This document shows, in pieces, positions 29,510-35,249 of a DNA stretch of 64,000 bases. Every line of letters starts with the position of its first letter. Position 1 is the first letter of the stretch. The position numbers and the translations under genes were made by a program. Location of the stretch: positions 107,396-171,395 of the forward strand of contig PNNN01000011.1 of NCBI GenBank assembly GCA_013824245.1, read 5' to 3'. This stretch comes from Chlorobiaceae bacterium. Lineage in GTDB: Bacteria > Bacteroidota > Ignavibacteria > UBA10030 > SZUA-254. The notes beneath the pieces are model-generated. The model had not been told where the DNA came from. It searched no databases and saw only the letters and a program-made list of their open reading frames with translations.

Positions 29510-29803
29510 GTGAAAAATTTAAACACGGTAAAAAAAATATTAGTAAAGCACAAACCTGAAATCGTTAAAAGATTTCATGTTAAGGAGATAGGTGTTTTTG
29601 GATCTTACGTTAGGAATGAACAGAAGAAAAGGAGTGATGTAGATATACTTGTGGAGTACTCTAAAGTTCCCGGATTCTTTGAATATCTGGATCTAGAAGA
29701 GTATCTATCGAATCTCTTGAATTTAAAAGTCGACCTTGTTATGAAAAGCGCTTTGAAACCGTACATAGGAAAATATATTCTTCAAGAGGTTATGTATCTA
29801 TGA
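29510..29803 (+). CDS. MNT nucleotidyltransferase antitoxin (type VII TA)
   Basis: A 97-residue minimal nucleotidyltransferase with VFGSYVRNEQKKRSDVDILVEY: Gly31-Ser32 and Asp43/Asp45 of the pol-beta site, and LKVDLVMK with the third Asp. It starts with GTG. Its end overlaps the HEPN gene by 4 bp. In characterised MntA/HepT pairs the antitoxin adds AMP to the toxin tyrosine. The set appears complete, in contrast to the broken pair at 16508-17003. Confidence 0.92.
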   Translation: MKNLNTVKKILVKHKPEIVKRFHVKEIGVFGSYVRNEQKKRSDVDILVEYSKVPGFFEYLDLEEYLSNLLNLKVDLVMKSALKPYIGKYILQEVMYL

Positions 29804-30186
29804 CCCGGACTATAGCAGATTATGTCAAGGATATAAATGACATGATCACAAAGATAGAAGAGTTCTCTGAAGATATAAAATTTGAACAATTTGAGAAGGA
29901 TGAAAAGACAAAGTATGCAGTTGTACGTGCATTAGAAATAATGGGAGAAGCATCTAAAAATATTCCACCTTTTATCAAGAAGAAATATAATAAAGTTCCA
30001 TGGAAGAAAATGGCAGGAATGAGAGATAAATTGATTCATGAATATTTTGGTGTAAATACAAAGGTATTATGGCAAACAATCAATGAAGAAATTCCAGTGA
30101 TCAAGCAATTGCTCAAGAATATCTCTGAAGAAATTCATGATGAACTGAGGTTAGATTTTCGTAATAATGAAAACCATAATAAATAG
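29800..30186 (+). CDS. HEPN (DUF86/HepT-like) RNase toxin
   Basis: A 128-residue DUF86 HEPN protein. The catalytic RNase motif RDKLIHEY (Arg75, His80, Tyr82) is intact, and Tyr82 lies where MntA AMPylates HepT toxins. VVRALEIMGEASKNIP is the usual preceding helix. The 4-bp overlap with MNT indicates tight coupling. The C-terminal tail is short, basic and Asn-rich. An active, neutralisable toxin is expected. Confidence 0.92.
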   Translation: MTRTIADYVKDINDMITKIEEFSEDIKFEQFEKDEKTKYAVVRALEIMGEASKNIPPFIKKKYNKVPWKKMAGMRDKLIHEYFGVNTKVLWQTINEEIPVIKQLLKNISEEIHDELRLDFRNNENHNK

Positions 30187-31232: not shown

Positions 31233-31589
31233 ATGACTACCGAGGAATTGAAAGAGCGAACAAAAAAAATGGCATTGGAAGTTATAAGATTAACTTCATC
31301 ATTGCCACGAAATAGAGAGGTGGATGTTTTAGCAAAACAATTAGTACGTTCCGCAACTTCCGTAGGTGCCAATTATCGATCCGCATGTCGAGCACGTTCA
31401 AAAGCCGATTTTATAAATAAAATTGATATCGTTGAAGAAGAAGCTGACGACTCTTTGTATTGGCTGGAATTATTTACAGAGTCAAAGATAATAAAATTCG
31501 ATAAAGTCCAACCATTGATGAATGAAATGAAAGAATTATTGGCAATTTTTACTGCCTCAGGTAGAACGGCTAAATTTGGTAAAAAATAA
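31233..31589 (+). CDS. Four-helix-bundle protein of the 23S rRNA intervening-sequence type
   Basis: A 118-residue member of the S23/IVP four-helix-bundle family: MALEVIRLTSSLPRNREVDVLAKQLVRSATSVGANYRSACRARSKADFINKIDIVEEEADDSLYWLEL is the diagnostic run, spanning residues 13-80. Members lie in insertions of 23S rRNA genes in some bacteria and are scattered singly elsewhere; relatives act as accessory Avd proteins of diversity-generating retroelements. No reverse transcriptase or rRNA is in the window. A GGAAGG ribosome site precedes the ATG. It is flanked by heptad tracts in opposite orientation (31189-31216 and 31589-31616). Confidence 0.92.
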   Translation: MTTEELKERTKKMALEVIRLTSSLPRNREVDVLAKQLVRSATSVGANYRSACRARSKADFINKIDIVEEEADDSLYWLELFTESKIIKFDKVQPLMNEMKELLAIFTASGRTAKFGKK

Positions 31590-31616: not shown

Positions 31617-31703
31617 AATATCATAGTAAACTTTTTACCTAAAAATATGTCTAATTTTCAGTCTATTTCCACAATCTAATAAATAATCATTATTTTATAT
31701 CAA

Positions 31704-33110
31704 ATGAAGAAAAAAATATTTTTATATTCCGGAGTAGGTATTATAATAATCGCAGTTGCGGTTTATTTCTTATTCTTTAGTTCGGATTCCGCGGAAATTA
31801 AGTATAGGACCGAAAAAGTAACTCGTGGAGATGTTACTATACAGGTGCGGGCAACCGGCACTATAAACCCCGTTCAAACAGTACAAGTTGGAAGTCAGGT
31901 ATCGGGAATAATTGATAAACTTTATGCCGACTTCAACTCGGAGGTGAAGCAAGGACAAATAATCGCACGTATCGATTCAACGTTTCTTTATGCATCTGTA
32001 AAAGAAGCAGAGGCAAATCTTGAGCGCAACCAAGCACAAGTCAACGAAGCAAAACGCAGCTTCAATAGAACGACAGAGCTGTTTAAGAAAAATTTAGTAT
32101 CGCAAGCTGATCTCGATGCTGCACAAACTCAATTTGAAGCTGCGACTGCACAGCTTAAGCAATCGCAAGCATCCTTAGACAGAGTTATGGTGAATTTGCG
32201 CTATTCTATTATTCGCGCACCGATAGACGGAGTAGTGATATCGAGAGAAATCGATGTCGGTCAAACTGTGGCGGCAAGTTTTCAGGCGCCAAAGCTTTTT
32301 ACTATCGCAAACGATCTGAAACAGATGCAGGTGGAAGCAAGTGTGGATGAAGCAGATATTGGGCAAATCAAAGAAGATCAAGTGGCAACCTTCACAGTTG
32401 ATGCATATCCCGGTGAAGAATTCGAAGGTGAAGTTACACAGGTTCGTCTTTCACCAGTAACGGTTCAGAATGTAGTTACTTACACTGTTATTATTCATGT
32501 CCCGAATGCTGATCTAAAACTCAGACCCGGAATGACGGCTACGGTTTCCATACTAATCGACAAACGCGAGAACGTGCTTCGCGTTCCAACACTTGCAATC
32601 CGTTTCCAGCCGCCTCAGGAAGTTTTAGCGAAGATGAAGAATGAAGGCAAGCCGGAAACAGGAGACAAAATAATAACCGAAGCCAAGCCCGAACAGAAAT
32701 CGCCTGAGAATCAAGTAGGTGAACAACGCATGAGAGAATTCAGACAAGGGAACCCTTCAGGTGAACAAAAAAGCGAACGTGGACGACCTGAAAAAATGGA
32801 GCGAAGAAAATTTCGATCGGGCGATGATTCTCTTAATCAAGATGGCAGTATGACGAGGAAACATTTCAAACCGAAGACGGCAAAAGTTTGGATTTTAGAA
32901 AAAGGGAAGGACCTAAAATCAATCGAAGTTCGCACGGGCATCAATGATAACCGCTTCGTTGAAATCATGACCGATGAGTTAAAAGATGGCGATGAAATTA
33001 TTATTGGAACGACGAACGGGGCGACTGCAATGGGATCACAGCAAACTAATCCATTTGCACCGAGGACGATAGGCGGATCCGGTTCTGGTATGGGTCGCCG
33101 GGGACCATAA
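31704..33110 (+). CDS. MacA-like periplasmic adaptor of an efflux ABC transporter
   Basis: A 468-residue membrane-fusion protein anchored by an N-terminal helix (residues 5-26). The lipoyl half-motifs (GTINPVQTVQVGSQVSGIIDKLYADFNSEVKQGQIIARID; then LRYSIIRAPIDGVVISREIDVGQTVAA) flank an alpha-hairpin (residues 90-165), and the beta-barrel domain ends LRPGMTATVSILIDKR. An insertion of about 85 charged residues (310-395, rich in Glu, Lys, Arg and Gln) interrupts the C-terminal domain. It should join an inner-membrane pump to an outer-membrane channel. The partner permease follows 23 bp downstream. Confidence 0.93.
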   Translation: MKKKIFLYSGVGIIIIAVAVYFLFFSSDSAEIKYRTEKVTRGDVTIQVRATGTINPVQTVQVGSQVSGIIDKLYADFNSEVKQGQIIARIDSTFLYASVKEAEANLERNQAQVNEAKRSFNRTTELFKKNLVSQADLDAAQTQFEAATAQLKQSQASLDRVMVNLRYSIIRAPIDGVVISREIDVGQTVAASFQAPKLFTIANDLKQMQVEASVDEADIGQIKEDQVATFTVDAYPGEEFEGEVTQVRLSPVTVQNVVTYTVIIHVPNADLKLRPGMTATVSILIDKRENVLRVPTLAIRFQPPQEVLAKMKNEGKPETGDKIITEAKPEQKSPENQVGEQRMREFRQGNPSGEQKSERGRPEKMERRKFRSGDDSLNQDGSMTRKHFKPKTAKVWILEKGKDLKSIEVRTGINDNRFVEIMTDELKDGDEIIIGTTNGATAMGSQQTNPFAPRTIGGSGSGMGRRGP

Positions 33111-33133
33111 ATGGAAAACGGTTAGAGAAAATT

Positions 33134-34354
33134 ATGATGAGATTTATAGAAATATTACGTATAGCATTCGATGCATTGCTGCGAAACAAAATGCGCTCAC
33201 TGCTTACAATGCTCGGTATCATTATTGGTGTTGGCGCAGTGATTGCGATGGTGGCTATCGGGCAAGGTGCTCAGGTTCAGGTAGAAGCCCAGATAAGTAG
33301 TTTGGGTTCAAATATATTGTTAGTATTTCCAGGCACAACCACACGCGGAGGTGTAATGGCTGGGGCAGGCACCGGATCTACGATCACTGAAGAAGACGGT
33401 CAAGCAGTGAAAGAACAATGCCCTGCAGTCGCCTACGTCAGTCCGCTACTTCGATCTGGTGCACAAGTAGTTTATGCAAATCTCAATTGGGGTACGGTAA
33501 TTCAAGGTGGTGCTGTTGATTTTTTTTCTATCCGAGATTTCAGATTGCAGTCGGGTGATTATTTTACTGAGCAAGATGTTCGTGCTGCAACAAAAGTATG
33601 TTTACTTGGGAAAACTGTTGTAGACCAATTATTTGAATCTGCTGATCCGGTAGGACAAACAGTACGCATTCGCAATATTCCCTTTAGGGTAATTGGAACG
33701 CTGCAGCCGAAAGGGCAGAATGCGATGGGGCAAGATCAGGATGATATTATTATCATTCCATACACAACATTACAAAAACGGTTGATGGGTCATACACGGT
33801 CCTGGGGTTTCATTGTATCGGCAGTTAGTAAAGCACAAATTAGTGCAGCGCAGCAGCAGATCACCGATCTTCTACGAGTTCGTCATAAACTTGGACCTAT
33901 GGATGATAATGATTTCACGATACGTACTCAAACAGAAATCGCCGATGCGCAATCGGCAACTGCCAATATAATGACGATTCTTCTTGCAAGCATTGCATCT
34001 ATATCTTTGCTTGTTGGTGGAATTGGTATCATGAACATCATGCTTGTTTCGGTAACGGAACGAACGCGCGAAATAGGAATACGAATTTCCATAGGCGCGA
34101 GACAGAGAGATATATTAACTCAATTCTTAATGGAAGCTATCGTAATGAGTTTGCTTGGAGGACTCATCGGAATTTTGTTCGGTGTTATTGCATCAAATCT
34201 TGTTTCCAAATTTGCAGGGTGGCCCACATTTGTAACAGCACAGTCAATAATTATGGCGGTATCGTTTTCTATGGCAGTCGGTGTATTTTTCGGATATTAT
34301 CCCGCAAGGAAGGCATCCGGGCTTAACCCAATTGATGCACTGAGGTATGAATAA
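33134..34354 (+). CDS. MacB-like ABC transporter permease (no ATPase domain)
   Basis: A 406-residue protein with the MacB periplasmic core (residues 45-230) between the first membrane helix and three C-terminal helices (FtsX domain). Family motifs include NKMRSLLTMLGIIIGVGAVIAMVAIGQGA and, later, GGIGIMNIMLVSVTERTREIGIRISIGARQRDILTQFLMEA, with the coupling-helix segment RTREIGIR for contact with the ATPase. The product is a macrolide/lipid/peptide exporter-type permease. Unlike full MacB it lacks the ATPase, which in split systems is a separate gene; none lies next to it here. Confidence 0.93.
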   Translation: MMRFIEILRIAFDALLRNKMRSLLTMLGIIIGVGAVIAMVAIGQGAQVQVEAQISSLGSNILLVFPGTTTRGGVMAGAGTGSTITEEDGQAVKEQCPAVAYVSPLLRSGAQVVYANLNWGTVIQGGAVDFFSIRDFRLQSGDYFTEQDVRAATKVCLLGKTVVDQLFESADPVGQTVRIRNIPFRVIGTLQPKGQNAMGQDQDDIIIIPYTTLQKRLMGHTRSWGFIVSAVSKAQISAAQQQITDLLRVRHKLGPMDDNDFTIRTQTEIADAQSATANIMTILLASIASISLLVGGIGIMNIMLVSVTERTREIGIRISIGARQRDILTQFLMEAIVMSLLGGLIGILFGVIASNLVSKFAGWPTFVTAQSIIMAVSFSMAVGVFFGYYPARKASGLNPIDALRYE

Positions 34355-34370
34355 TCTATAGGGGGTTATT

Positions 34371-35249
34371 GTGATTAAAATATGGTCAGAAGATGAAATA
34401 AAATTTTTAAAAAAACATTATAGGAAACACGGAGCAAAGTATGTTGCTGAAAAGATAGGCAGAACAACCGATTCTGTTACGATGAAAGCAGGACAACTCG
34501 ATATCCATGTTAAAAATATAAGAAAATGGGAAGAGTGGGAAGACAATTATCTACGGCGTCATCATGAAGACAGAACTAACGGTTCTATTGCCCGATCTCT
34601 TAAAAGAACTGTACCGTCGGTTCTTGGAAGATTGAAAAAGTTAGGACTGACCGGACCTCGTCATGAAAGATGGACGGAAGAACAAAAAGAATTACTTCGA
34701 AGATATTATCCCGATAGATCGGTTTCACTTACGGAACTTGCAAAATTGATCGGCAGATCAAGATACAGCTTACTTATCTATGCACAATACCTCGGAGTGA
34801 ACAGACCTCAGCACGATCATGAATGGTCGAAGGAAGAGCACCGCTACCTTGTTAAAAATTTTAAGAAGAAGACAAACAAGGAACTTGCCGAGGGTCTTGG
34901 TTTAACGCTCAGTGCAGTCAATCATTACCTTAGCCGCCACGGATTAAACCGCCGACCAAAACCGCGTCGATGGACGGATGAGGAAAAAGAATATCTTCGC
35001 GTAAACTATAAAAAAATTCCAACTAAAGAAATTGCAGAAAAATTTCAACGCAGTAAAGATAATATTATCAATTATGCAGGCGAATTAGGATTAAGTTCCG
35101 GTCCAAGTAAATTATGGACTGAACAAGATAAAACTTACGTTATAGAAAATTACAGTAGTGAGCCGATTGAAAAGATAGCGGAAAATTTAGGCAGGACTGC
35201 AAAAGCCGTTGAAGCTTATGTGGTGAAGCATAAATTATTTCGTAAATGA
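34371..35249 (+). CDS. Protein of six tandem Myb/SANT-like DNA-binding repeats
   Basis: The whole 292-residue protein consists of six tandem units of 48-51 residues. Each starts W-[ST/E]-x-[ED]-[EQWH]-x(3)-[YFL]-[LV] (Trp at 5, 53, 101, 152, 201 and 249), continues with a helix holding IA..LGR and ends with a third helix AV..Y..xLGL. This is the Myb/SANT helix-turn-helix pattern. A single or double copy is common in phage and bacterial proteins, but six with nothing else is unusual. It starts with GTG behind AGGGGG and lies 16 bp after the macB-like gene. Sequence-specific DNA binding is expected; the target is unknown. Confidence 0.85.
   Translation: MIKIWSEDEIKFLKKHYRKHGAKYVAEKIGRTTDSVTMKAGQLDIHVKNIRKWEEWEDNYLRRHHEDRTNGSIARSLKRTVPSVLGRLKKLGLTGPRHERWTEEQKELLRRYYPDRSVSLTELAKLIGRSRYSLLIYAQYLGVNRPQHDHEWSKEEHRYLVKNFKKKTNKELAEGLGLTLSAVNHYLSRHGLNRRPKPRRWTDEEKEYLRVNYKKIPTKEIAEKFQRSKDNIINYAGELGLSSGPSKLWTEQDKTYVIENYSSEPIEKIAENLGRTAKAVEAYVVKHKLFRK

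What the first reader, a model, noticed from the sequence alone, without database searches (positions are those of the whole stretch)
34371..35249. Protein composed only of six Myb/SANT-like repeats
Trp residues recur at 5, 53, 101, 152, 201 and 249, each opening a three-helix unit of 48-51 residues. Six tandem repeats with no effector domain would give a long DNA-reading rod, unlike ordinary bacterial regulators. The window also has abundant tandem heptads (7 bp) and octads (8 bp), so a protein reading periodic DNA is an appealing but untested idea. The gene sits 16 bp behind macB-like efflux genes and could regulate them.
Basis: partly seen in the sequence, partly recalled or inferred. Interest (0 to 1): 0.65.

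Follow-up and report, generated by a model that had tools for sequence, protein, structure and literature searches.

The report
Six-repeat Myb-type DNA-binding protein
A Bacteroidota gene encodes a protein made of nothing but six linked DNA-gripping units of the Myb/GcrA type; it is a real, selectively maintained member of a scattered family also found in phages and plasmids, most likely an effector-less DNA-binding regulator whose target is still unknown.

Summary
ORF 34371-35249 (292 aa) is six tandem three-helix units and nothing else. Each repeat is recognised by a model of the other five (27-47 bits; shuffled proteins at most 11). Profile search finds c-Myb R1R2R3 (E=1e-5) and GcrA. The AlphaFold model (pLDDT 87) shows 6x3 helices, but pTM 0.33 suggests flexible beads rather than a rigid rod. 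Relatives with 2 to at least 8 repeats occur in 32 of 294 genomes of the class, in none sampled from the rest of the phylum, and in phages and plasmids; PHROG names the nearest family 'D5-like'. Repeats keep their position identity across genera (93 of 103). Predicted base-contacting residues are as conserved as the core in close pairs but the most variable between distant orthologues, suggesting sequence-specific binding with shifting targets. The heptad idea fails (few, short, not linked to the gene). A CRISPR-repeat role fails (no cas1 in the own genome). Linkage to macAB holds in five genomes but not in most, and a suspected operator upstream of macA is no more conserved than other intergenic DNA. 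Best reading: an effector-less Myb/GcrA-type repeat regulator, target unknown; a new member of a known kind.

The parts
34371..35249 (+). Gene for a 292-aa protein composed only of six Myb/GcrA-type HTH repeats (GTG start, pI 9.9, 34.6 kDa)
   Evidence: purifying selection, dN/dS 0.08
34377..34520 (+). Repeat 1 (residues 3-50), recognition-position residues T D T M G Q
   Evidence: HMM 79.5 bits, leave-one-out 36.3 bits
34521..34664 (+). Repeat 2 (residues 51-98), V P L G K K
   Evidence: HMM 77.1 bits, leave-one-out 26.7 bits
34665..34814 (+). Repeat 3 (residues 99-148), R Y L I Q Y
   Evidence: HMM 70.7 bits, leave-one-out 27.7 bits
34818..34961 (+). Repeat 4 (residues 150-197), L S N H S R
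   Evidence: HMM 77.4 bits, leave-one-out 41.6 bits
34965..35105 (+). Repeat 5 (residues 199-245), K D I N G E; the most conserved slot across the class (DxIINxAGPL)
   Evidence: HMM 80.0 bits, leave-one-out 47.4 bits
35109..35246 (+). Repeat 6 (residues 247-292), A K E A V K; absent from the 5-repeat clade
   Evidence: HMM 74.4 bits, leave-one-out 32.6 bits
34360..34365 (+). AGGGGG, likely ribosome-binding site of the repeat gene; the 16-bp gap to macB is 15/16 conserved in the same-genus genome
31704..33110 (+). macA-like membrane fusion protein, upstream in the same gene string
   Evidence: PF16576 HlyD_D23; synteny
33134..34354 (+). macB-like permease (MacB_PCD + FtsX, no ATPase domain), ends 16 bp before the repeat gene

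Best explanation
The protein is an effector-less, sequence-specific double-stranded-DNA binder built from six Myb/GcrA-type helix-turn-helix units. Each unit inserts its third helix in the major groove; neighbouring units presumably line up along the DNA as in c-Myb R2R3, Reb1 or archaeal Cbp1, so that one monomer could cover roughly 20 bp (inference from c-Myb, not shown). Having no enzyme or ligand domain, it would act by occupying a site (promoter occlusion, block of elongation or termination, local DNA architecture) and probably regulates transcription of a few targets, perhaps its own operon. Shown: fold, repeat architecture, absence of other domains, purifying selection, position-specific conservation, patchy distribution within the class. 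Inferred: DNA binding, site length, regulation.
For: Repeat homology. Profile hits to c-Myb R1R2R3 aligned over three consecutive repeats and to GcrA; the GcrA model matches 28 of 30 homologues. Structure neighbours GcrA DBD Z 8.6, c-Myb and Cdc5. K+R minus D+E is +23, pI 9.9. Repeats keep slot identity across genera, 93 of 103, so each unit has its own role. In four close pairs the predicted base-contact positions (fixed beforehand by mapping c-Myb R3) changed in 10/132 cases versus 82/510 at other surface positions (Fisher p=0.012), as low as the core; between distant orthologues the same positions are the most variable (0.57 vs 0.48 surface, 0.35 core). That is what one expects of specificity residues that hold in the short term and switch in the long term. 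Paralogues with different repeat numbers in one genome (several loci each in G141, G166 and G024) fit a family of individual regulators.
Against: No DNA target was found. The conserved block upstream of macA (31626-31670) is no better conserved than other intergenic DNA of the same genome pair, and the upstream regions of 11 orthologues in another family share at most a promoter-like TAATTTTG box. pTM 0.33 leaves the arrangement on DNA open. The conservation contrast rests on 10 changes and four pairs. No expression or binding data.
Confidence: 0.55

Rival explanations
1. A D5-like low-specificity, possibly cooperative dsDNA-coating protein (nucleoid-type), as phage T5 D5 may be: a DNA-binding protein needed for replication and late transcription.
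For: phrog_323 'transcriptional regulator, D5-like' is the best library hit, E=3e-54; T5 D5 carries weakly recognisable copies of the same repeat, 10.6 and 11.3 bits against 5.6 for the best of 2,000 shuffles, and is annotated as DNA-binding, required for replication and late transcription. D5 was a major virion-associated protein in a T5-like phage (PMC8624392). High positive charge.
Against: Slots are kept distinct and recognition positions are constrained in close pairs; several differing paralogues in one genome; gene missing from most relatives (found in 11 of 60), unlike a nucleoid protein. The PHROG match covers only profile positions about 94-195 of 319.
Confidence: 0.22
2. A dedicated regulator of the macAB-like efflux genes with which it is probably co-transcribed.
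For: macA-macB-repeat gene order with gaps of 16, 16, 22, 144 and 679 bp in five genomes of two families, with two different subfamilies of the repeat protein.
Against: Most genomes with the repeat gene have it elsewhere (behind proS, beside a histidine kinase, near hyp genes); relatives keep macB followed directly by uvrB without it (G109, G223, G249). Between window and same-genus genome macA fell to 64 % identity while the repeat protein stayed at 86 %; against G227 macB is 94 % but the repeat protein 39 %, so alleles move independently. No special operator found.
Confidence: 0.15
3. A reader of periodic DNA (short heptad/octad tracts, or CRISPR repeats as archaeal Cbp1 does).
For: Four period-7/8 arrays in the window against none in 20 shuffles; Cbp1 (2lvs) is the second hit of the family profile in the PDB (E=3.5e-5), and Cbp1 is itself a three-HTH, effector-less protein that binds CRISPR repeats along their length (PMC10883916); in G130 the gene lies about 240 bp from a CRISPR array.
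Against: Tract density is not higher in genomes that carry the gene. The window's genome, G069 and G227 have no cas1; 14 of 32 genomes with the gene have cas1 against 128 of 262 without.
Confidence: 0.03
4. A recently captured phage or homing-endonuclease targeting module, i.e. mobile cargo without a settled host role.
For: Related arrays in phages (HNH endonucleases, D5-like regulators) and plasmids; patchy distribution.
Against: No phage or plasmid genes beside it in the window; dN/dS 0.08-0.20 in four close pairs; orthologues in 11 sampled genomes of one distant genus (g53), several at a shared location near hyp genes; no close relative found in IMG/VR contigs.
Confidence: 0.05

Closest known systems
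Phage 'D5-like transcriptional regulators' (PHROG 323; e.g. Listeria phage B054 gp65; namesake phage T5 D5)
   Same: Same repeat: B054 gp65 has four repeats (113 bits in all with our repeat model); T5 D5 has two or three weak ones. Repeat-built DNA-binding proteins.
   Different: The PHROG match covers only about two repeats of the 319-position profile at a time; T5 D5 has barely recognisable repeats and a phage role; the window protein has six clear repeats and is chromosomal.
GcrA DNA-binding domain (PF07750; Caulobacter 5yiu/5yiv)
   Same: Best single-domain structural match (Z 8.6, 1.3 A over 47 residues); 28 of 30 homologues match the GcrA model.
   Different: GcrA has one such domain plus a C-terminal part; here six copies and no such part; whole-protein GcrA score 26.8 is just below the cut-off 26.9.
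c-Myb R1R2R3 and other eukaryotic Myb/SANT repeat proteins (1h88; Reb1 5eyb; Cdc5)
   Same: Tandem Trp-opened three-helix repeats of about 50 residues; profile E=1e-5 aligned over three consecutive repeats; top Foldseek hit.
   Different: Only the first Trp of each repeat is kept (classical Myb repeats have three aromatic core positions); six repeats, bacterial, no activation domain.
Cbp1, archaeal CRISPR-repeat-binding protein (2lvs)
   Same: Effector-less chain of duplicated HTH domains lined up along one DNA site (PMC10883916); profile E=3.5e-5.
   Different: Three domains, archaeal, CRISPR-bound; the window's genome has no cas1.

Membership tests
Myb/SANT (PF00249) repeat | Profile score above Pfam cut-off | tested here: met
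   25.9 bits, cut-off 24.4, whole protein; 18 of 30 homologues match at E<=0.001
Myb/SANT (PF00249) repeat | Three-helix HTH unit of about 50 residues opening with Trp, in tandem | tested here: met
Myb/SANT (PF00249) repeat | Three regularly spaced Trp (or aromatic substitutes) per repeat | tested here: not met
   Only the first Trp is conserved; the other core positions are Leu/Ile/Val/Ala. This is the bacterial GcrA-like form.
Myb/SANT (PF00249) repeat | DNA binding | not testable with these tools
   needs EMSA/SELEX
D5-like phage transcriptional regulators (PHROG 323) | Significant profile match | tested here: met
   E=3e-54
D5-like phage transcriptional regulators (PHROG 323) | Match over most of the profile length | tested here: not met
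   Stretches match positions about 94-195 of 319, three times over; the profile also rings in 11 of 14 control genomes, so it is partly a generic HTH model
D5-like phage transcriptional regulators (PHROG 323) | Sequence relation to T5 D5 itself | tested here: inconclusive
   28 bits in all with our repeat model, single repeats 10.6 and 11.3 bits vs 5.6 for best shuffle
GcrA cell-cycle regulators (PF07750) | Whole-protein match including the part behind the DNA-binding domain | tested here: not met
   Only profile positions 2-47 of 155 match, 26.8 bits vs cut-off 26.9
Cbp1 CRISPR-array-binding proteins | Host has CRISPR-Cas | tested here: not met
   No cas1 in G000, G069, G227

The most novel reading that the evidence does not exclude
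A natural modular DNA-reading scaffold: each of the Myb/GcrA-type units reads its own 3-4 bp, units keep their order over long times while their recognition residues are re-tuned, so that the family forms a bacterial counterpart to zinc-finger arrays whose target could be predicted from unit order.
Probability: 0.12. Interest if true: 0.8.

Novelty: new member of a known kind. Interest (0 to 1): 0.36.

Why it matters
If the units read DNA independently, this family would provide a compact (48-51 residues per unit), bacterial, repeat-only set of DNA readers with natural variants of 2 to at least 8 units, useful both for learning how Myb/GcrA helices choose bases and as a scaffold. Even in the ordinary reading it shows that effector-less Myb-type arrays, known mainly from phage annotation, are long-kept chromosomal genes in one class of Bacteroidota.

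Tried and rejected
(1) Operator upstream of macA: a 45-bp block with the palindrome-like GTAAACTTTTTAC (31626-31638) is conserved in the same-genus genome, and its second half is unique in both genomes, but all intergenic regions of this pair longer than 50 bp are 73-82 % identical with equally conserved 40-bp stretches, and 1-mismatch copies of the 13-mer are no more frequent than the backwards control. Dropped; it may simply contain the promoter. (2) Autoregulation footprint in 11 five-repeat orthologues: only a promoter-like TAATTTTG box in 6 of 11. (3) Heptad/octad tracts as targets: no association. (4) Cbp1-like CRISPR binding: own genome lacks cas1, no co-occurrence. (5) My first idea that strict conservation of recognition residues would show one fixed target: entropy at these positions across the class is higher, not lower, than at other surface positions, repeat 5 excepted; replaced by the close-versus-distant contrast. 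(7) Literature search for bacterial tandem Myb/SANT proteins found nothing on point in the held open-access library. (8) Rigid-rod idea: AlphaFold gives no confident inter-repeat arrangement.

Full report
OBSERVATION. The open reading frame 34371-35249 (+) encodes 292 residues with Trp at 5, 53, 101, 152, 201 and 249, plus W56. Models built from five repeats find the sixth at 26.7-47.4 bits, whereas the best score in 1,000 shuffled copies of the protein is 11.0 bits; repeats are 22-35 % identical to each other. The repeat model covers residues 3-292, so nothing else is encoded. The AlphaFold2 model (30 aligned homologues) shows three helices per repeat (helices 1 and 2 of the first run together) with mean pLDDT 87.3 but pTM 0.33: well-defined beads, undetermined relative placement. 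The gene is under purifying selection (dN/dS 0.08 against the same-genus copy).

WHAT THE REPEATS ARE. Pfam lists Myb_DNA-binding above its cut-off and GcrA 0.1 bit below it; over 30 homologues GcrA matches 28 and Myb 18. The family profile against PDB sequences gives c-Myb R1R2R3 first (E=1e-5, aligned over three consecutive repeats), then Cbp1 (3.5e-5) and GcrA (1.4e-3). By structure the GcrA DNA-binding domain is closest (Z 8.6, 1.3 A over 47 residues), followed by Cdc5 and c-Myb, though Z values near 7 for small helical domains are not strong on their own.

FAMILY. In the own genome the gene is single. Relatives occur in 32 of 294 sampled genomes of the class and in 11 of 395 of the phylum, all of them in this class. 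One relative carries a public title, 'Bacteroidetes bacterium'. Repeat number runs from 2 to 8 recognised copies; some genomes hold several differing copies, G180 two in tandem. Distant relatives lie in phages (72 records) and plasmids (82 records, chiefly Priestia, Pseudomonas and sphingomonads). PHROG 323, 'transcriptional regulator, D5-like', is the best library hit (E=3e-54), but only about 100 of its 319 positions match at a time, and the model also rings in 11 of 14 control genomes. T5 D5 itself contains the repeat only faintly; Listeria phage B054 gp65 has four copies and a Sphingobium plasmid protein six clear ones. T5 D5 is annotated as a DNA-binding protein needed for replication and late transcription, is abundant in a T5-like virion (PMC8624392), and is a trigger of retron-Kva2 through its HTH (PMC13405049, a preprint).

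EVOLUTION OF THE ARRAY. Comparing orthologues of 38-55 % identity, 93 of 103 repeats are closest to the window repeat in the same slot; same-slot identity is 0.55 within the 6/7-repeat clade against 0.29 between slots, and 0.44 against 0.29 between the 6/7- and 5-repeat clades. The array is therefore old and its units are not homogenised. Base-contact positions were fixed in advance by mapping c-Myb repeat 3 (columns 31, 32, 35, 36, 39, 40). Across the class they are more variable than the rest of the surface, except in repeat 5. In four close pairs they changed in 10 of 132 cases against 82 of 510 for other surface positions (p=0.012) and 23 of 267 for the core. Constraint on short and change on long time scales is what re-targeting specificity residues would show. 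The sample is small.

NEIGHBOURHOOD. The order macA-macB-repeat gene holds in the window, G069, G227, G166 and G141, with gaps of 16, 16, 22, 679 and 144 bp. In G109, G223 and G249 macB is followed directly by uvrB with no repeat gene. Elsewhere the gene sits behind proS, beside a PAS kinase, near hyp genes and so on (gene names of neighbours by eye from their sequences). In G227 the occupant of the macB site belongs to another subfamily (grouping with the second copies of G166/G141, support 97/91). Around the locus, window and G069 are 93-94 % identical at uvrB and the MFS gene and 86 % at the repeat protein, but 64 % and 83 % at macA and macB; window and G227 are 83 % and 94 % at macA and macB but 39 % at the repeat protein. 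macAB alleles and the repeat gene have thus evolved separately. I infer that a role in macAB control is possible but not the family's general job.

TARGET SEARCH. A conserved block upstream of macA looked promising but is no better conserved than other intergenic DNA of that pair. Heptad and octad arrays exceed shuffles in the window but are short and not linked to the gene: 3 in 210 kb from five genomes with a repeat gene, 4 in 144 kb from four without. A CRISPR-repeat role by analogy with Cbp1 fails because the own genome lacks cas1 and cas1 is equally frequent with and without the gene (14/32 against 128/262). The target remains unknown.

CONCLUSION. The protein most likely is an effector-less, sequence-specific DNA-binding regulator, one of a scattered family of Myb/GcrA-type repeat arrays shared by bacteria, plasmids and phages. 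DNA binding follows from fold and charge and is very likely; regulation of particular genes is inference. It is a new member of a known kind. The reading as a modular DNA reader is open and worth one SELEX experiment.

Noticed in passing
29510-30186: Nucleotidyltransferase + HepT-like pair (MntA/HepT-type toxin-antitoxin module) between the MFS gene and the M29 peptidase; present at the same place in G227 (44-55 % identity) but absent there in the same-genus G069.
   Followed up: partly
31233-31589: 23S rRNA intervening-sequence (four-helix bundle, PF05635) protein gene inserted just upstream of macA; absent at this place in G069 and without a match near macA in G227.
   Followed up: partly
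31704-34354: macA-macB tract with a sign of allele exchange: window and G227 closer than window and same-genus G069, while both flanks follow the genus; the homology tract to G227 ends at the macB stop codon.
   Followed up: partly
33134-34354: The macB-like gene lacks an ATPase domain (only MacB_PCD and FtsX), and no ABC ATPase gene was noticed beside it; a separate ATPase presumably serves it.
   Followed up: no
L040:9600-10044: In G130 a CRISPR array (repeat GTTTCAATCCACGCGCCCGCATGGGGCGCGAC, spacing 65-67) starts about 240 bp behind the seven-repeat orthologue.
   Followed up: yes
L038:8024-10035: G180 carries two repeat-array genes in tandem (7 and 6 repeats, 44 bp apart), strongly diverged from each other.
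   Followed up: partly
L043-L048 upstream of the repeat gene: Six of 11 five-repeat orthologues share a TAATTTTG box shortly before the start codon, resembling the Bacteroidota -7 element (from memory), suggesting expression from an own promoter there.
   Followed up: no
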